The notes under the pieces: model-generated | Databases searched by the model: none | What the model was told of the DNA's origin: nothing | The model's input: only the letters and a program-made list of their open reading frames with translations | In this document: positions 27,552 to 35,831 of the stretch, in pieces | Layout of the letters: each line of letters begins with the position of its first letter | How positions within the stretch are numbered: position 1 is the stretch's first letter | Translations under genes and position numbers: made by a program | Assembly (NCBI RefSeq): GCF_003583365.1 | Contig: NZ_QXED01000002.1 | Coordinates: 62,001 to 126,000, forward strand | DNA: 64,000 nucleotides | Origin: Fibrisoma montanum | Lineage (GTDB): Bacteria > Bacteroidota > Bacteroidia > Cytophagales > Spirosomataceae | Direction of reading: 5' to 3'

Positions 27552-27755
27552 TCTGGAATTTACGAAGAATCTATAATTGCCAAACTAAAAGTAAAGACAA
27601 TGTTTCAAAAATCACATTGTATGGTTATCGGAAAATGCTCCGCCCGGTACCGTGGCCTGCGTGCACCGTAGCCAAGAGAAATTGACCAAAACGTTGCGTA
27701 GGGCTAAGCTGATCCGCAAAAATGCCTTTCTTTGCGACTTTATCAACAATCCGGT

Positions 27756-29051
27756 ATGCGCTACGAATCCATAGATGCTCAGCTCTTCGTTCAGAACCGG
27801 CAACGGCTGAATGCGCTGCTGAAACCCAAATCGCTGGTGGTGTTGAACGCCAACGACATTATGCCTACCAATGCCGACGGCACCATGAGCTTTCGGCAGA
27901 ACAATGACCTGTTTTACCTGACGGGCGTTGATCAGGAAGAAACCCGCCTGGTGCTTTTTCCTGATCACCCGGACGAGAAATTCCGGGCAGCTTTGTTTCT
28001 GCGCGAGACCAGCGAACTGATCGAGATATGGGAAGGCCATAAGTTAACCAAGGAAGAAGCCAGTCAGGTGTCGGGCCTGCCTGAGAAGCAGATCTTCTGG
28101 ACCCACGAATTCGATTTTGTGTTTCAGCAGATGGTTTTTGAAGCCGAGCAGGTGTACCTGAACACAAACGAACACACCCGGGCCGAGGTGCAGGTGCAAA
28201 CCCGCGATGCCCGCTTTATCGAAGAATTCAAACAAAAATACCCCTTGCACCGGCTGGAGCGGCTCGCGCCCCTGATGCAGCACCTGCGGGCCACGAAACT
28301 GCCGCAGGAAATACAGTTGATCCAGACGGCCATCAATATCACCGAGCGGATGTTCCGGCGGTTGCTTACGTTCATCAAACCGGGCGTCTGGGAATACGAA
28401 ATTGAAGCTGAGGTATACCATGAGTTCCTGCGGAACCGGTCGCGGGGTCCGGCCTATTCGTCAATCATCGCGTCGGGGCCAAGTGCCTGCGTGCTGCACT
28501 ACGTTGACAACAACAAGCAGTGCAAAGACGGCGACGTAATCCTGCTCGATATTGGTGCGGAATACGCGAACTATAATGCCGATATGACCCGATCGGTGCC
28601 GGTCAGCGGTCGTTTTACGGAACGGCAGCGGGCCGTGTATGACGCCGTGCTGCGCGTAATGAACGAGGCTAAGCAAATGCTGCGGCCCGGTAATCTCTGG
28701 GACGAATACCACCGCGAAGTAGGTAAGGTGATGGAATCCGAGTTGATTGGGCTGGGGTTGCTGGACCGGGATGCCGTGCTGCAACAGAACCCGGATGCGC
28801 CCTTGTATAAGAAATACTTCATGCACGGTACGTCGCACTTTCTGGGACTCGACGTCCATGACGTTGGCAACAAGTACCGGCGGTTTGAACCGGGGATGGT
28901 GTTCACCGTTGAGCCGGGCATCTACATCCGAGAGGAGGGGCTGGGTATCCGGTTGGAAAACAACGTACTGATCACCGAAGATGGTAACCTGGATCTGATG
29001 GCCAGCATACCGCTCGATGCTGATGAGATCGAGGAGTTGATGAATCGGTAG
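27756..29051 (+). CDS. Xaa-Pro aminopeptidase (aminopeptidase P, M24B)
   Basis: 431 residues from the ATG at 27756; an in-frame TTG lies 24 bp upstream. The N-terminal domain contains FRQNNDLFYLTGVDQEETRL. The pita-bread metallopeptidase domain has metal ligands in LLDIGAEYANYNADMTRS (two Asp), HGTSHFLGLDVHD (His), TVEPGIYI (Glu) and GIRLENNVLI (Glu). It removes N-terminal residues that precede proline, in the cytosol. The length fits the family. A bidirectional hairpin separates it from the converging TetR gene. Confidence 0.92.
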   Translation: MRYESIDAQLFVQNRQRLNALLKPKSLVVLNANDIMPTNADGTMSFRQNNDLFYLTGVDQEETRLVLFPDHPDEKFRAALFLRETSELIEIWEGHKLTKEEASQVSGLPEKQIFWTHEFDFVFQQMVFEAEQVYLNTNEHTRAEVQVQTRDARFIEEFKQKYPLHRLERLAPLMQHLRATKLPQEIQLIQTAINITERMFRRLLTFIKPGVWEYEIEAEVYHEFLRNRSRGPAYSSIIASGPSACVLHYVDNNKQCKDGDVILLDIGAEYANYNADMTRSVPVSGRFTERQRAVYDAVLRVMNEAKQMLRPGNLWDEYHREVGKVMESELIGLGLLDRDAVLQQNPDAPLYKKYFMHGTSHFLGLDVHDVGNKYRRFEPGMVFTVEPGIYIREEGLGIRLENNVLITEDGNLDLMASIPLDADEIEELMNR

Positions 29052-29058
29052 GGCATGG

Positions 29059-29102
29059 TTTACTGTTTACGGCTTCCCGAGTGGAAAATCGTAAACAGTA
29101 AA
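29059..29102. terminator. Bidirectional terminator-like hairpin
   Basis: TTTACTGTTTACG (29059-29071) pairs perfectly with 29090-29102 around an 18-nt loop, between two converging genes. Confidence 0.55.
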
Positions 29103-29109
29103 TCATCAC

Positions 29110-29760
29110 TTATTTCACTTCTGCTTTCTTGGAGTCTTCTCGTTCGAGGGCAAGGTTAAGGCCGGCGTAGATTCGGCGAACGGCCTTTTCAATACGTTCC
29201 CAGCCTTCATCGGAGCGCAGGTCGATGCCTACGATCTGCTCCCGTTGGCTGCTCATAAGCACCATGTACGTAACGGCGGATACCATCAGGCTGGTGATGG
29301 CCAGCGGATCAAAATCGTGGTGAGGAGCGAGTTTCTCAACCAGTTTTTTGTACGAGTCGTCGCGGAAAGCGGCCAGCCGGCGGGCCAGTTCCGTTTCGCC
29401 ATGCGACATTTCCCAGCGTACCAGTTCCTGAGATGATTTGCGGGCCCGGAATTCGCGCATGAACTGGATCGTGTACTCCGACCAGACTTTACTCCGGTTC
29501 TCCGATGCGAGGTGCTCCGGAACGGCTTCCAGGAACTTCTCGTTGAACATCGATAGGAAAAAGCCGCGCTGAACATACGCTTCGAGCAATCCGTTCCAGC
29601 CGCCAAAATAGCGGTAGATAAGCACCTTGTTAACGCCGGCCCGTTCGGCCACGGCGTTGATGCCTGCTTTTTCGGTGCCGCGTTCAGCCATGACATCGCC
29701 CATTGCCCGCAGGATTCGCTCCATGGTCATTTGACGATTTCTACGCTTGATAACCTTCAT
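29110..29760 (-). CDS. TetR/AcrR-family transcriptional regulator
   Basis: 216 residues. The N-terminal HTH reads MERILRAMGDVMAERGTEKA then AVAERAGVNKVLIYRYFGG, the usual TetR recognition helix with YRYF. A helical ligand-binding domain and a charged tail follow. TetR proteins generally repress a neighbouring gene until a small ligand binds. No efflux gene is adjacent, and the upstream neighbours are immunity-like genes, so its target is unclear. Confidence 0.9.
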   Translation of the reverse strand: MKVIKRRNRQMTMERILRAMGDVMAERGTEKAGINAVAERAGVNKVLIYRYFGGWNGLLEAYVQRGFFLSMFNEKFLEAVPEHLASENRSKVWSEYTIQFMREFRARKSSQELVRWEMSHGETELARRLAAFRDDSYKKLVEKLAPHHDFDPLAITSLMVSAVTYMVLMSSQREQIVGIDLRSDEGWERIEKAVRRIYAGLNLALEREDSKKAEVK

Positions 29761-29897
29761 GATACTAACTTTTGTGTTTGAGAATTAGGCGTGCAGTGCA
29801 TTAACTAACAATACGTTAGCATTCCCACTAATTCAGTAGAGAATTATAAGGAATGCACAAATATGGTTACTTTTCAAATTGTTACCAAGTGGTAACG

Positions 29898-30341
29898 TCA
29901 GCTGCGAACTGGAAAACTTGAAAATTGCTGTTCGAGTTGATGAATCGCTTCCGACAGCTTGTGTTTGTTGATGACGACGGGAAGCCAGAAAGGGGTAAAC
30001 GGATCGTAGTGCCAGTCGGGGGCGACCTCGAAGGCTAATTTAATCTGCAGCAGAAACTCGTCAGTATCAGCCGATATACATTCAAAACTCAGACAGGGCT
30101 CCGCAAACAGCAAACGGGGTAAAGGTCTCCCGGTGGTGCAGAGGTGCCGAAGCCAGTTGATTAATCGTTCAATCTCGTAGGTATGCAGAATGGCGGCCGT
30201 TGCCGTCGACTGATGATGCTGCCAGCCGGTCCGAACAGCAACCCACAACAGATTCCGATCCGCCGACGAAGGAGCCGTGTGCGGGTGTTCATAATCAAGG
30301 AGGTTAAGCTCAAAATAGCTGCGCTGGCCGTTCAGTAGCAT
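29898..30341 (-). CDS. WapI-family immunity-like protein (paralogue 1)
   Basis: 147 residues, no signal peptide or membrane helix. It begins with YFELNLLDYEHP, then DRNLLWVAVRTGWQHH, a LHTYEIERLINWLRHL helix and a LLFAEPCLSFECIS strand. This layout is that of WapI-type immunity proteins, which bind contact-dependent toxins in the cytosol. It shares the same order of motifs with the next gene, 147 bp away, so the two are divergent paralogues. No toxin gene is nearby. The family call is by pattern only. Confidence 0.6.
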   Translation of the reverse strand: MLLNGQRSYFELNLLDYEHPHTAPSSADRNLLWVAVRTGWQHHQSTATAAILHTYEIERLINWLRHLCTTGRPLPRLLFAEPCLSFECISADTDEFLLQIKLAFEVAPDWHYDPFTPFWLPVVINKHKLSEAIHQLEQQFSSFPVRS

Positions 30342-30436
30342 CGGGTAGATCGATAACGGATTAAGTAGTCAGATAGGTGCTGACGATACGCTATCTATAT
30401 ACGTTGGTAAGATAGCGACAATATTACGAAATGCAA

Positions 30437-30469
30437 AACCCAGTATGGTAAGCTATACCATACCGGGTT
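30437..30469 (-). terminator. Hairpin downstream of WapI-like paralogue 2
   Basis: Arms 30437-30450 and 30456-30469 pair at 13 of 14 positions. On the minus strand the stem is followed by TTTTGCATTT. Confidence 0.55.
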
Positions 30470-30488
30470 ATAACGATACCCTGCCTGA

Positions 30489-30920
30489 TCAACGTTCGGG
30501 GTAGCTGGCCAACTCGCCGGACAGGTCGCTGATCGCTTCCTGTAACTGGCTGGGAGTAAGGAGTAAATCCATTTCAACCGGAAAATCCGGATAGGTATGC
30601 CACGATGGAGTCAGCGTATGATCCAGCTGAATCTGAAGCCGGTACAGATCGTTGGGTAAAGCGGTCGCTTCTACGCTCAGACCGGGTTCCGAGAACGTAA
30701 GGGCCAGATGGTTGACCACTTTATTGCGTAACGAACGCAGGCCATCCAGCAGCCGACCGATTTCCCAGGTCTGCAACGGCGTCGACTGCGTGTCTTTCTG
30801 GTGCCGCCAGATGGTCGAAATCCGGCAGCGCAGGTTGTTGCGGTCGCGCCAGTTAGCGCTGGTGTTGCCGTAGCCGAGAATGGACAGTTCGAATGAGCCC
30901 GTAGGAGATATAAACTTCAT
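30489..30920 (-). CDS. WapI-family immunity-like protein (paralogue 2)
   Basis: 143 residues, cytosolic. The order GSFELSILGYGN, DRNNLRCRISTIWRHQ, LQTWEIGRLLDGLRSL and LTFSEPGLSVEAT repeats that of the neighbour at 29898. It has its own terminator-like hairpin. Orphan immunity genes are often kept in arrays after loss of the toxin. A general role in protection against rival toxins is inference from family resemblance. Confidence 0.6.
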   Translation of the reverse strand: MKFISPTGSFELSILGYGNTSANWRDRNNLRCRISTIWRHQKDTQSTPLQTWEIGRLLDGLRSLRNKVVNHLALTFSEPGLSVEATALPNDLYRLQIQLDHTLTPSWHTYPDFPVEMDLLLTPSQLQEAISDLSGELASYPER

Positions 30921-31095
30921 AACGTAAGAGAGACGGATGCCTTTGGTCTATAAAACAAATATACTATTTGTTTGTTTATCACGACATTAAAGTTTTCGCC
31001 GGGTCGTTCGTACCGCCGGCAGACCGCTGCCTATGATATTACTGTGAAGTTGGTGTATATCCCGAACAGGCGGTTTCAGGCTGTCGGGGTTTCCG

Positions 31096-31103
31096 TATCT
31101 TTG
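31096..31103 (+). promoter_or_regulatory. -7 box of the carboxynorspermidine synthase gene
   Basis: TATCTTTG, an exact TAnnTTTG match followed by C, 34 bp before the ATG at 31138. Confidence 0.5.
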
Positions 31104-31137
31104 CGGCCAAATCATATCACGACAAATAAGCAAGTAA

Positions 31138-32352
31138 ATGGCAAAAGTGCTCATTATCGGAGCTGGGGGCGTCGGCAGCGTTGTGGCGCACAAATGCGCG
31201 CTGAACCGTGAGGTCTTTACGGAAATTATGCTGGCCAGCCGAACCAAATCGAAATGCGACCGGATTGCGGCCGAGGTTCAGGCGATGCACGGCGTAACGA
31301 TCCAGACCGCGCAGGTCGACGCCGACGTAGTTCCGGAACTCGTCGCGCTGATCCGGCAGTTCAACCCGGTGATGGTCATCAACGTGGCCCTGCCTTATCA
31401 GGACCTCCCCATCATGGATGCCTGCCTTGAAGCCGGCGTTCATTACCTCGATACGGCCAACTACGAACCCAAAGACGTAGCCAAGTTTGAATACAGCTGG
31501 CAATGGGCCTACAGGGAGCGTTTCGAGCAGGCCGGATTGATGGCTCTGCTGGGCTGTGGCTTTGATCCCGGCGCTACCCAGGTATTCACGGCCTATGCCG
31601 CTAAGCATCACTTCGACCGGATGGATTACCTAGATATCGTCGACTGCAACGCAGGTAACCACGGCAAGGCGTTCGCGACCAACTTCAACCCGGAGATCAA
31701 CATCCGCGAAATTACCCAGCCGGGCCGCTACTGGGAAAACGGCGAATGGATCGAGATTCCGGCCATGAGCATCCATAAGCCCATTGAATACCCAGAGATC
31801 GGGCCCCGTGAGTCGTATGTGCTGTACCACGAAGAACTCGAATCGCTGGTGAAAAACTTCCCAACCCTGAAGCGGGCGCGGTTCTGGATGACTTTCGGTC
31901 AGGCGTATCTAACGCACCTGGACGTATTACAGAACGTTGGGATGACACGTATTGATCCGGTTAAATTCCAGGGTATGGACATTATACCCCTGGAGTTCCT
32001 GAAGGCTGTATTACCCTCACCTGATACGCTGGGCGAAAACTATACAGGGCAGACGTCCATCGGCTGCCAGATCAAAGGCGTGAAAGACGGGGCCGAACGG
32101 ACGTACTTCATCTGGAATAACTGCGACCACGCCGAAACGTACAAGGAAGTGCGCGGGCAGGCCGTGAGCTACACCACGGGCGTACCGGCCATGATCGGCG
32201 CGATGCTGATGCTGACCGGCGTCTGGATGAAGCCCGGTGTCTGGAACTGCGAGGAACTCGATCCCGATCCGTTCATCGAGCAGATGAACAAACAGGGGCT
32301 GCCGGTGCAGGAGCGGGTGGATATTCCGCTGCCGCACGAGTACCCGGCGTAA
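31138..32352 (+). CDS. Carboxynorspermidine synthase (saccharopine dehydrogenase family)
   Basis: 404 residues. An N-terminal Rossmann fold (VLIIGAGGVGSVVAHKCA) is followed by INVALPYQDLPIMDACLEAG, HYLDTANYEP and LLGCGFDPGATQVF, which mark carboxynorspermidine dehydrogenases in the LYS9-like group. The enzyme condenses aspartate semialdehyde with putrescine or diaminopropane to a carboxy-polyamine using NADPH. The decarboxylase of the same pathway (nspC) lies 2.3 kb downstream, which makes the assignment firm. The usual adjacency of the two genes has been broken by TonB and immunity genes. Confidence 0.9.
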   Translation: MAKVLIIGAGGVGSVVAHKCALNREVFTEIMLASRTKSKCDRIAAEVQAMHGVTIQTAQVDADVVPELVALIRQFNPVMVINVALPYQDLPIMDACLEAGVHYLDTANYEPKDVAKFEYSWQWAYRERFEQAGLMALLGCGFDPGATQVFTAYAAKHHFDRMDYLDIVDCNAGNHGKAFATNFNPEINIREITQPGRYWENGEWIEIPAMSIHKPIEYPEIGPRESYVLYHEELESLVKNFPTLKRARFWMTFGQAYLTHLDVLQNVGMTRIDPVKFQGMDIIPLEFLKAVLPSPDTLGENYTGQTSIGCQIKGVKDGAERTYFIWNNCDHAETYKEVRGQAVSYTTGVPAMIGAMLMLTGVWMKPGVWNCEELDPDPFIEQMNKQGLPVQERVDIPLPHEYPA

Positions 32353-32411
32353 GTTTGTGGAAGTTAAGGCAATTGTGCATCCATTGGCTGTAACCAAACC
32401 AGCCCGATGTT

Positions 32412-33221
32412 ATGTCTACTGCTTCTACTCTCGACGAACTGGTATTTGAAAATCGCCTGAAAGCTTATGGCGCGTTTGATCTGCGCCGACAGTATCGACC
32501 GACGCTCGCCCGTGCACTGGGATTGGGCGTCGGTTTGTTTTTATTGGGACTGGGCCTGCCCACGGTGTATGGCTACCTGTGGCCCGACGGAATCATGAGC
32601 GATCAGCCCACAATGATTGAGGCCGAACTGACCAGACTGCCCGACGTACCGGCTGAGAAACCCATTTCATTACCGCCCGTCGAAGCACCCCCAACGGTCA
32701 ATACGGTCCGTGACTTACCCCCGGTGGTTATGCCCGATGCTGAGGTTTTGGAAGACGTATTGCCACCAACTACTGACGAGCTGGCCGACGCAACGCCCGG
32801 CGATCAGACGGCCGAAGGTACCGGCGATGTGGAGGTAATTCAGGCACCGGAAGGTAACGTACTAACCGTAGTAGAAAAGGCCGTTGAAGCGGAGGTGAAA
32901 TCCGAAGAACCGTTTATCTCCGTTGAGCAGCAACCGCAGTTTCCCGGCGGCCTGGAATCGCTCCGCAGTTTTCTGGAGAAGAATCTTCGGTACCCGGCCC
33001 CAGCCAGTCGGTCGGGGATATCTGGGCGGGTAGTTGTGAGTTTTGTGGTCAACACCGACGGCCGCCTGACGGATGTACAGGTACTGAAAGGCATTGGCTT
33101 CGGCTGCGACGAAGAAGCATTACGGGTGGTGAAGCAGATGCCGCCCTGGAAGCCGGGCAGGCAATCGGGCCGGATGGTTCCGGTTAAGTTCAATCTGCCG
33201 ATTGCCTTCGCGCTGGAATGA
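32412..33221 (+). CDS. Energy transducer TonB
   Basis: 269 residues. An N-terminal Bacteroidota-type anchor (KAYGAFDLRRQYRP, then ALGLGVGLFLLGLGLP) spans the inner membrane. A Pro/Glu/Asp-rich periplasmic linker covers residues 70-165 (LPPVEAPPTVNTVRDLPPVV and onward). The TonB C-terminal domain begins with PQFPGGLESLRSFLEKNLRY and ends with VPVKFNLPIAF. It passes proton-motive energy to outer-membrane receptors. No ExbB or ExbD gene is nearby. Part of the linker is duplicated 1,330 bp downstream. Confidence 0.92.
   Translation: MSTASTLDELVFENRLKAYGAFDLRRQYRPTLARALGLGVGLFLLGLGLPTVYGYLWPDGIMSDQPTMIEAELTRLPDVPAEKPISLPPVEAPPTVNTVRDLPPVVMPDAEVLEDVLPPTTDELADATPGDQTAEGTGDVEVIQAPEGNVLTVVEKAVEAEVKSEEPFISVEQQPQFPGGLESLRSFLEKNLRYPAPASRSGISGRVVVSFVVNTDGRLTDVQVLKGIGFGCDEEALRVVKQMPPWKPGRQSGRMVPVKFNLPIAFALE
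32638..32890. repeat. Direct repeat copy 1 within tonB (linker-coding)
   Basis: A 253-bp stretch matching 33968-34220 without gaps; I count about 17 differences over the first 243 bp, near 93% identity. It encodes the periplasmic linker only. Most differences are synonymous third-position changes. Confidence 0.9.
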
Positions 33222-33420
33222 AACAGATAAGCACGCGAAAGACTAACGGGTGGAACGGTACGCCGTCGCGGTCAGGACCCGCTCTGCTCCTTACTTGCCA
33301 AGGTTCGTATAGAAATGAGGGCATCAAGACCGCAGAGATTATTTGTAGCGCATCTAGTGAAGTACGACAAACATTGTCAATTAGTTAACCTTTTCAAATA
33401 GAGACACTACTAAGAAAATA

Positions 33421-33813
33421 CTACTTCGGATCAGCGAAGGGCTTGTAATCTTCAAATTCCCAACGAGCAATTCTGTTAATTTTTAGTGCTACCTCCTCCC
33501 AAGTTTGTCCTTCCACCGATAAAATATAATTGGTAATAGTAGAGAGTATGCGTTCAAAATTGTAATGATTCGCAAAAATCAAGTGCTTACCAAATATGAC
33601 ATCTGAAGGAGGATAAATTTTTTTCATTAACTCAGGCAAATAAGAGGGACTACAAATAAAAACGTTGAACATATCTTCACTATTCTGAAGGGGGCCTTCA
33701 TCAGGCGCTAAAATCAGCTCCAAGTTGAATCCAAAGTGAGTAGGATCGTCAGGTTGAAAACCAAAAAGATCATGAATATCTATGCTATAGTATTCTTTTA
33801 TTATTGCTTTCAT
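33421..33813 (-). CDS. Imm8-family immunity protein
   Basis: 130 residues from the ATG at 33813; the frame is open further upstream but that part is unlike the family. Family features are YYSIDIHDLFGFQPDDPTHF, GFNLELILAP, MFNVFICSPSYL, FGKHLIFANHYNFERI, and the hallmark C-terminus EVALKINRIARWEFEDYKPF. Imm8 proteins neutralise toxins delivered by contact-dependent systems. The DNA here is clearly more A+T rich than its neighbours, a sign of transfer. No toxin gene accompanies it. It lies between a TonB gene and a partly duplicated TonB-like gene. Confidence 0.8.
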   Translation of the reverse strand: MKAIIKEYYSIDIHDLFGFQPDDPTHFGFNLELILAPDEGPLQNSEDMFNVFICSPSYLPELMKKIYPPSDVIFGKHLIFANHYNFERILSTITNYILSVEGQTWEEVALKINRIARWEFEDYKPFADPK

Positions 33814-33888
33814 AAAGCACTTTTTGCAGAGAAGGTAAAGGTTCAAAATCTTTTTACTATCACCAAATAGTAACACTGATCTACCAAA

Positions 33889-34617
33889 ATGTACGCCAAT
33901 CCGGGTAAATACTTGCCTATTCTAGTTGTGAAACACCCTCTGTATTCATTCGGGCACAATACCATATTGCCCGACGTACCGGTTGAGAAACCCATTCCAT
34001 TACCGCCCGTCGAAGCACCCCCAACGGTCAATACGGTCCGTGACTTACCCCCGGTGGTTATGCCTGACGCTGAGGTTGTGGAGGACGTACTGCCACCAAC
34101 CACCGACGAGCTGGCCGACGCAACGCCTGGCGATCAGACGGCCGAAGGCACCGGCGACGTCGAAGTGATTCAGGCACCGGAAGGTAACGTACTAACCGTA
34201 GTAGAAAAGACCGCTAAAGCAGTAGGGGGCATTAGCCAAAAGCTTATGATCAGCATTCTGCTCTGGATTCTGACGCAACCCAGTCATGGCCAAACGTTTA
34301 TTAACACGGTAAAGGAACCTGCATTTCCGGGCGGACAAAAAGCATTGACCAATTATATGCGTCAACAGGTACGGTATCCAAAAGCTGCCGAACAAGCTGG
34401 CGTTAGGGGCCGAGTTTTTGCGTCATTTGTTATTGATACGCTCGGCTTTGTGGATATATCCACCATAAAAATTTTAAAAGGATTAGGGTATGGATGCGAT
34501 GAAGAGGCCGTTCGGGTAATTCGCCACATGCCGCGTTGGACACCAGGAACAAATTCTGGAAAAGTTTGGGCGGTACTTTATAATTTACCCATTTACTTTC
34601 CTGTCCGCCAGGAGTAA
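33889..34617 (+). CDS. Chimeric TonB-like protein lacking the N-terminal anchor
   Basis: 242 residues from the ATG at 33889. Residues 1-26 are unrelated to TonB anchors. Residues 27-111 repeat the linker of the upstream TonB almost exactly. Next comes a hydrophobic stretch (LMISILLWILTQPSHGQ) that looks like a signal peptide, then a TonB C-terminal domain (EPAFPGGQKALTNYMRQQVR, GCDEEAVRVIRHMP). I infer that a linker fragment was pasted in front of a small periplasmic TonB-C protein whose own start may be the ATG at 34246. Whether the long form is made is unknown. Confidence 0.6.
   Translation: MYANPGKYLPILVVKHPLYSFGHNTILPDVPVEKPIPLPPVEAPPTVNTVRDLPPVVMPDAEVVEDVLPPTTDELADATPGDQTAEGTGDVEVIQAPEGNVLTVVEKTAKAVGGISQKLMISILLWILTQPSHGQTFINTVKEPAFPGGQKALTNYMRQQVRYPKAAEQAGVRGRVFASFVIDTLGFVDISTIKILKGLGYGCDEEAVRVIRHMPRWTPGTNSGKVWAVLYNLPIYFPVRQE
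33968..34220. repeat. Direct repeat copy 2 (tonB linker duplicate)
   Basis: Second copy of the 253-bp tonB linker segment at a constant 1,330-bp offset. The two copies flank the A+T-rich Imm8 gene. Confidence 0.9.
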
Positions 34618-34682: not shown

Positions 34683-35831
34683 ATGAATACGACCTTACGC
34701 GAAAACGTCCATACATTTCCATCCCCCTGTTTTGTTCTCGACGAAGCGAAACTGCGCCAGAATCTTGAATTAATAAACGGCGTGCAGCAGGCGGCCGGGG
34801 TGCAGATCATTCTGGCTCTCAAGGCTTTCTCCATGTTCAGCGCCTTTCCGATTGTGCACGAATACCTGAGCGGGGCAACGGCCAGTTCGCTGAATGAGAT
34901 CAAGCTCGTCAACGACTACATGGGTGTGAAAGCGCACACGTACATCCCGGCTTACCGCGACGATGAATTTGACGACGTACTGGAACGTAGCAGTCACCTT
35001 ACGTTCAACTCGTGGAGCCAGTGGGAGCGGTTTGGGGCGCGGGCCGTGGCAGCCGGGATTTCGTGCGGTATCCGCGTCAATCCGCAGTACTCGGAGGTGG
35101 CCACGGATATGTACAATCCCTGCGTGCCCGGTTCGCGGCTGGGCGTCACGCGCGACCACCTGCCCGATCAGTTGCCGGGAGGTCTCGAAGGAATTCACTT
35201 TCACACCCTCTGCGAAAACGATTCGTTCACCCTCGAACGTACGCTCGAAGCCCTCGAAAGTCGTTTCGGCGATCTGCTGCATCAGGCCAGCTGGGTAAAT
35301 CTGGGCGGTGGCCACCTGATGACCCGCGAAGGCTACGACATCAATCACCTGATTGGCTTACTGACGGCCTTTCGTGAAAAATACAACGTTCACGTCATTA
35401 TGGAACCCGGCTCGGCCATTGCCTGGCAAACGGGCGTACTGGTTTCGACGGTGCTGGACGTATTTAACAGCCAGGGGATCGACGTCGCGGTGCTTGATAC
35501 GTCGTTTGCGGCCCATATGCCCGATACGCTCGAAATGCCCTACAAACCCCGGATTGTTGGGGCCTACCACGAACCGGTTGCCGACAAACCGACATACCGG
35601 CTGGGGGGCATGACCTGTCTGGCTGGCGACTTCATGGGAGACTACTCGTTTGACGAACCGCTGGCCGTAGGCGACAGGCTGATTTTCGACGACATGATTC
35701 ACTATACGATGGTGAAAACCACTACGTTCAACGGGGTAGGGCTGCCGGCCATCGGCATCTGGAAACCGGAGAATTCATTTCAACTGATACGGTCGTACGG
35801 CTACGAAAGCTTTAAAGATCGGCTCAGCTGA
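34683..35831 (+). CDS. nspC: Carboxynorspermidine decarboxylase
   Basis: 382 residues of the alanine-racemase-fold, PLP-dependent family. The PLP lysine is in QIILALKAFSMF. GIHFHTLCENDSF, WVNLGGGHLMTREGYD, MEPGSAIAWQTG, and the active-site Cys region GGMTCLAGDFMGDYSFD are standard for NspC. It decarboxylates carboxynorspermidine or carboxyspermidine to the polyamine. The ATG at 34683 is the first that fits; a TTG at 34623 lies upstream of the -7 box. It completes the pathway begun by the synthase at 31138. Confidence 0.93.
   Translation: MNTTLRENVHTFPSPCFVLDEAKLRQNLELINGVQQAAGVQIILALKAFSMFSAFPIVHEYLSGATASSLNEIKLVNDYMGVKAHTYIPAYRDDEFDDVLERSSHLTFNSWSQWERFGARAVAAGISCGIRVNPQYSEVATDMYNPCVPGSRLGVTRDHLPDQLPGGLEGIHFHTLCENDSFTLERTLEALESRFGDLLHQASWVNLGGGHLMTREGYDINHLIGLLTAFREKYNVHVIMEPGSAIAWQTGVLVSTVLDVFNSQGIDVAVLDTSFAAHMPDTLEMPYKPRIVGAYHEPVADKPTYRLGGMTCLAGDFMGDYSFDEPLAVGDRLIFDDMIHYTMVKTTTFNGVGLPAIGIWKPENSFQLIRSYGYESFKDRLS

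What the first reader, a model, noticed from the sequence alone, without database searches (positions are those of the whole stretch)
32412..34617. TonB linker duplication flanking an A+T-rich Imm8 immunity gene inside the carboxynorspermidine locus
The sequence shows a 253-bp direct repeat (32638-32890 and 33968-34220, about 93% by my count, no gaps) bracketing a low-G+C Imm8 gene on the opposite strand. The two polyamine genes that belong together lie on either side. This looks like acquisition or rearrangement that used the tonB linker as its homology. The mechanism is inference.
Basis: partly seen in the sequence, partly recalled or inferred. Interest (0 to 1): 0.65.

Follow-up and report, generated by a model that had tools for sequence, protein, structure and literature searches.

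The report
Recent immunity-gene insertion beside tonB
In one bacterial lineage a small piece of foreign DNA, carrying a gene that probably protects against a rival's toxin, a scrap of a mobile element and a displaced fragment of the neighbouring tonB gene, has been inserted next to tonB; this is a well-documented but ordinary gene-acquisition scar.

Summary
A 260-bp, 92% identical, gap-free direct repeat (32631-32890, 33961-34220) brackets an A+T-rich, opposite-strand Imm8 gene (PF15586, 6e-26). The only congeneric genome held has synthase-tonB-short tonB_C-nspC with no Imm8 and no repeat, and none of the other 40 family loci mapped has Imm8 there. A ~0.98-kb insertion (about 33243-34220) in the window's lineage is well supported. 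The insertion point is the spacer ~21 bp after the tonB stop, not the linker. The insert is a three-part mosaic: ~90 bp of the 5' leader of an IS110-family element, ~625 bp of foreign DNA with imm8, and the linker copy, joined in frame at a microhomology to a pre-existing short TonB_C gene. The second 'TonB' is not a tonB duplicate; only its linker is. The linker copy's own changes are 10 silent to 2 replacing (P about 1e-4 under neutrality), so it diverged inside a working gene: imported from a sister lineage, or left from a chimeric second TonB later beheaded by the Imm8/IS110 piece. Imm8 here is an orphan immunity gene with no toxin beside it. Interest is low to moderate.

The parts
31138..32352 (+). 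carboxynorspermidine synthase-like gene (saccharopine dehydrogenase fold)
   Evidence: PF03435/PF16653; NF043000 E=1e-121, below its cut-off
32412..33221 (+). tonB1, complete: N-terminal anchor, proline-rich linker, TonB_C; undisturbed
   Evidence: PF03544 3e-20; colinear with sister genome at a uniform dS of about 0.34
32631..32890 (+). linker, copy 1 of the direct repeat (native)
33222..33242 (.). ancestral tonB1-tonB2C spacer up to the left joint (...CACGCGAAAGA)
   Evidence: colinear with sister genome up to 33242, junctions
33243..34220 (.). lineage-specific insert, about 0.97-0.98 kb, absent from sister genome
33243..33332 (+). remnant of the 5' non-coding leader (bridge-RNA region) of an IS110-family element, truncated at both ends, no transposase
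   Evidence: E to 1.5e-13 in family genomes; mostly 60-90 nt upstream of IS110 transposases
33333..33957 (.). A+T-rich foreign segment holding imm8 (G+C 32-39%)
33421..33813 (-). imm8: intact Imm8-family immunity protein, 130 aa, with C-terminal WEF motif
   Evidence: PF15586 6e-26; relatives at 33-43% identity
33961..34220 (+). linker, copy 2 of the direct repeat; the last ~10 nt grade into ancestral spacer at the microhomology joint
33889..34617 (+). chimeric ORF of 242 aa: 26 foreign codons + linker copy 2 + tonB2C; lacks the N-terminal membrane anchor of TonB
34246..34617 (+). tonB2C: pre-existing short TonB_C gene with its own ATG and signal-peptide-like start
   Evidence: same ORF without linker in sister genome; similar short TonB_C ORFs in other genomes of the family
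34686..35831 (+). nspC, carboxynorspermidine decarboxylase
   Evidence: TIGR01047 E=3e-152, above cut-off

Best explanation
After the window's lineage split from its sister species, a ~0.98-kb mosaic was inserted into the short spacer between tonB and a pre-existing short TonB_C gene. The mosaic is a scrap of an IS110 leader, an A+T-rich orphan immunity gene (Imm8) of foreign origin, and a tonB linker fragment. The joints look like microhomology-based (illegitimate) joining. The linker was cargo or a product of the event, not the site of crossover. The linker copy diverged while still part of a working tonB gene, so it was most likely brought in from a sister lineage or comes from an earlier in-frame tonB copy at this spot. 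The Imm8 protein probably acts as a stand-alone cytoplasmic immunity protein that binds and neutralises a toxin domain (Ntox7 type in the literature) delivered by competitors. The two polyamine genes and tonB1 are left intact. Shown: insertion, its limits, its parts, the orphan state within the locus, selection on the linker copy. Inferred: joining mechanism, source of the linker, function of Imm8.
For: The sister genome has the empty site: alignment runs unbroken 27667-33242 and resumes at 34206, with spacer GAAACGGATAAGCACACGAAAGAGGGCCAAAGCAGTAGG intact. No Imm8 at this locus in 41 mapped loci, 25 of them with TonB_C just upstream of nspC; Imm8 relatives in only 4 other genomes of 222, at other sites. 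G+C and codon use of imm8 are foreign. IS110 leader match in about a dozen other family genomes, best E 1.5e-13, mostly 60-90 nt before transposases with PF01548 and PF02371. Linker copy 2: 10 silent to 2 replacing private changes, P=0.00005-0.00025 under neutral simulation; copies 1 and 2 share 19 states against the sister, only 3 the other way. Imm8 mainly accompanies Ntox7 toxins and has a C-terminal WE-aromatic motif (PMC3482391), present here as WEF. Relatives lie next to CdiA/FHA-type genes in Proteobacteria but are solitary in Spirosomaceae genomes.
Against: Only one congeneric genome is held, so the time of insertion and the source of the linker cannot be pinned down. One homologous-recombination step followed by deletions could in principle end in the same structure. 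No transposase or recombinase is present to explain entry. The IS110 remnant and Imm8 need not have come in one event. The cognate toxin was not identified (the one family search made used the wrong accession).
Confidence: 0.78

Rival explanations
1. Beheaded chimeric TonB: the N-terminal half of tonB1 (anchor + linker) was first duplicated and fused in frame to the short TonB_C gene, giving a second complete TonB with a different C-terminal domain; it worked for a while, then the IS110/Imm8 piece removed its anchor.
For: The joint between linker copy 2 and tonB2C is in frame. Linker copy 2 evolved under protein-level selection. The missing part is exactly the N-terminal side, where the foreign segment now sits.
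Against: In-frame joining is a 1-in-3 chance event. No trace of the tonB N-terminus is left in 33333-33960. A signal-peptide-like segment would lie in the middle of the chimera. No relative with the intact chimera was found.
Confidence: 0.25
2. Recombination through the tonB linker: a donor molecule carrying Imm8 and a tonB linker crossed over in the native linker, leaving a repeat on each side.
For: A long direct repeat brackets the foreign gene.
Against: Copy 1 is followed by the native TonB_C and spacer, with no break in divergence from the sister; copy 2 is not followed by TonB_C of tonB1. Both joints are in the spacer. Further deletions must be assumed.
Confidence: 0.08
3. Local copying error: repair of a break in the spacer copied the cell's own linker by template switching and captured foreign DNA; copy 2 is a non-functional duplicate.
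For: Microhomology GGCC...AAGC at the right joint; copies 1 and 2 are sisters.
Against: Copy 2 has 12 private changes against 3 in copy 1 before the joint, and 10 of 12 are silent, unlike a dead duplicate.
Confidence: 0.12
4. Ancestral arrangement lost in relatives.
For: None found.
Against: Sister and outgroups lack it; the sister spacer is clean.
Confidence: 0.03
5. Assembly chimera.
For: Draft genome in 39 contigs, single observation.
Against: The locus lies well inside a 1.0-Mb contig; the repeats differ at 8% of sites, so a repeat-collapse join is unlikely.
Confidence: 0.03

Closest known systems
Orphan immunity genes, including acquired interbacterial defence (AID) islands of Bacteroidales
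   Same: A stand-alone immunity gene of foreign base composition, without its toxin, gained by one lineage; a reported class (PMC12247911 and PMC10470768, titles and abstracts only).
   Different: A single gene in a scar, no recombinase and no array of immunity genes in the insert; different order of Bacteroidota; protective function untested.
Imm8 immunity proteins of polymorphic toxin systems (Zhang et al. 2012, PMC3482391)
   Same: Full-length PF15586 match with the C-terminal WE-aromatic motif.
   Different: No toxin gene next to it.
IS110-family insertion sequences with bridge RNA (PMC11208158)
   Same: About 90 bp of the leader preceding the transposase.
   Different: Only a fragment: no transposase, half of each predicted hairpin missing; not mobile.
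Homology-facilitated illegitimate recombination (literature noted; details from general knowledge)
   Same: Foreign DNA with a segment homologous to the recipient, joined elsewhere through microhomology.
   Different: The homologous segment here is not continuous with recipient sequence on its expected side.

Membership tests
Imm8 (PF15586) | Match to the profile over its length, above the curated cut-off | tested here: met
   91.2 bits against a cut-off of 27, profile 3-114/114
Imm8 (PF15586) | C-terminal WE-aromatic motif | tested here: met
   RWEFEDYKPF in the translation; motif from PMC3482391
Imm8 (PF15586) | Adjacent toxin gene (mostly Ntox7) | tested here: not met
   Neighbours are tonB1 and tonB2C; hence called orphan. 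This is typical context, not a condition of family membership.
Imm8 (PF15586) | Neutralises a toxin by binding | not testable with these tools
   needs experiment
TonB (for ORF 33889-34617) | TonB_C domain | tested here: met
   PF03544 46.4 bits, cut-off 24.6; TIGR01352 below its cut-off
TonB (for ORF 33889-34617) | N-terminal membrane anchor as in tonB1 | tested here: not met
   26 unrelated codons precede the linker; no similarity to the tonB1 N-terminus
IS110 element (for 33243-33332) | Leader homologous to that of IS110 elements | tested here: met
IS110 element (for 33243-33332) | DEDD transposase | tested here: not met
   none in the insert; the only one in the genome is an apparently frameshifted copy on another contig
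AID island | Recombinase next to an array of immunity genes | tested here: not met
   single immunity gene in the insert, no recombinase

The most novel reading that the evidence does not exclude
The locus records the birth and loss of a second TonB: the anchor-linker half of tonB was fused in frame to a stand-alone TonB_C gene, served as a new TonB with a different receptor-binding end under selection, and was then beheaded by an immunity-gene insertion. It would suggest that the short TonB_C genes arrayed beside tonB in this family act as a reservoir of alternative C-terminal ends.
Probability: 0.2. Interest if true: 0.45.

Novelty: new member of a known kind. Interest (0 to 1): 0.27.

Why it matters
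It is a clean example of how a single orphan immunity gene enters a conserved housekeeping neighbourhood, with both joints readable against an empty site in the sister species. It also corrects the idea that the repeat was the crossover site. If the chimeric-TonB reading held, it would point to TonB C-terminal exchange from neighbouring short genes.

Tried and rejected
Chance repeat: rejected. Duplicate of the whole tonB: rejected, only the linker is shared and tonB2C is older. Known RNA family in the insert: nothing near a gathering score. A source for 33868-33966: only chance-level matches. Intact IS110 copy in the same genome: none, only an apparently frameshifted copy; the short own-genome matches to the leader (16-29 nt) look like chance hits, mostly inside coding sequence. 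Imm8 on plasmids: only distant relatives, up to 36% identity. Two queries (tonB1L, tonB2C) were translated out of frame by my slip, so their hits are not used; the linker and tonB2C statements rest. One search used PF15540, which is Ntox47 and not Ntox7, so it says nothing about the cognate toxin. Searches failed on frame.

Full report
Observation. Between the copies, on the minus strand, lies an Imm8 gene (33421-33813 with the most likely ATG start; PF15586 6e-26 over the full profile). It has 35.9% G+C and 33% GC3 against 56.4% and 67.9% for 33 long ORFs of the window, and poor codon adaptation. The flanking polyamine genes are as stated.

The empty site. The family search for nspC covered 222 genomes: the window's own, one other of the same genus and 220 of the same family. 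The sister genome carries, in the same order as the window, pepP, tetR, two WapI-like genes, synthase, tonB, a short TonB_C gene and nspC. DNA alignment with it is unbroken over 27667-33242, then resumes at 34206. Sister spacer: GAAACGGATAAGCACACGAAAGA GGGCCAAAGCAGTAGGGGG; window left joint GAAACAGATAAGCACGCGAAAGA|CTAACGG; window right joint GTAGTAGAAAAGACCGC|TAAAGCAGTAGGGGG. No Imm8 match occurs in any of the 41 mapped nspC loci, in 25 of which (sister included) a TonB_C domain lies just upstream of nspC. Imm8 relatives occur in only four other family genomes, at 33-43% identity and elsewhere in the genome. The insert is therefore derived in the window's lineage.

What the insert is made of. 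(a) About 33243-33332 matches about a dozen other family genomes, several of them more than once (best E 1.5e-13; two of the listed genomes match other parts of the query, weakly). In nearly all cases examined the matching stretch lies upstream of an IS110-type transposase or its remains, usually 60-90 nt before its start, and the intact ones match PF01548 and PF02371. That is the leader where the bridge RNA of IS110 elements is encoded (PMC11208158; general knowledge). The window keeps only the 3' arm of the first predicted hairpin and the 5' arm of the second (read by eye from the folds), so it is a scar. (b) 33333-33957 is A+T-rich foreign DNA with imm8. (c) 33958-34220 is the linker copy. 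It runs in frame through a short microhomology (GGCC...AAGC) into the leader of the pre-existing short TonB_C gene, so that a 242-aa ORF appears. The 26 codons before the linker have no recognisable relative, and no remnant of the tonB anchor is found.

History of the linker copy. Copies 1 and 2 are sisters relative to the sister genome's linker (19 sites against 3). Divergence dS is 0.23 between the copies and 0.34 between species. On the branch to copy 2, before the joint, there are 10 silent and 2 replacing changes; 20,000 neutral simulations at each of four transition biases reach 10 silent with P of 0.00005-0.00025. So copy 2 was under protein-level selection for much of its separate history. 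A dead local duplicate does not fit. Two readings remain: import from a sister lineage's tonB, or a former chimeric second TonB at this place. The ancestral polarisation rests on a single outgroup sequence and small counts.

Crossover between linkers would leave the native TonB_C behind copy 2. Instead, copy 1 is still joined to the native TonB_C, whose divergence from the sister (dS 0.35) equals that of the rest of tonB1 (0.33-0.34). The insertion site is the spacer. The linker was not demonstrably the homology used.

Function. Imm8 is a family of predicted immunity proteins, mostly next to Ntox7 toxins (PMC3482391). In Pseudomonas, Paraburkholderia and Pantoea the relatives follow large haemagglutinin/VENN-type genes (neighbours read by eye). 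In the Spirosomaceae relatives whose neighbourhoods were read they stand without an evident toxin, for example next to a sigma factor or a methionine aminopeptidase-like gene (neighbour names by eye). The window gene is intact with its WEF motif, so an orphan immunity role is the most likely one; it is inferred, not shown. tonB1, synthase and nspC are intact, and relatives already hold other ORFs between the polyamine genes, so no effect on polyamine synthesis is implied.

Verdict. Real, lineage-specific and well delimited, but of a known kind: acquisition of an orphan immunity gene with a mobile-element scrap. The open point worth a second look is the selected, in-frame linker copy.

Noticed in passing
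29898-30341 and 30489-30920 (-): Two WapI-like immunity genes (PF24716) sit next to the synthase; the second is conserved at this place in most relatives that keep the synthase here, the first only in a few (L007, L050, L073).
   Followed up: partly
L037, L038, L051 (also L043, L049, L050, L069-L071, L074): Between tonB and nspC, many genomes of the related genus g33 carry one or two extra short TonB_C genes (one read in detail, L043:8541-8963, has a signal-peptide-like start); a tandem family of stand-alone TonB_C proteins of unknown role.
   Followed up: partly
L043:6850-7632: A 260-aa secreted-looking ORF lies between synthase and tonB in this g33 genome (similar spacing in others) and is missing in the window and its sister.
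   Followed up: no
L077, L078, L079, L083, L086, L091: Sequence upstream of these IS110 leaders is also conserved and, in L083, reads on the opposite strand into what looks like the end of another transposase, as if the IS110 elements insert at a fixed site at the end of another IS (by eye).
   Followed up: no
L101: An Imm8 relative in G185 lies beside an IS3-type transposase and a SUKH-like immunity gene, looking like a small immunity cluster (by eye).
   Followed up: no
L046 and L052: About 6 kb of extra DNA between synthase and tonB (L046), or between tonB and nspC (L052): the neighbourhood tolerates insertions.
   Followed up: no
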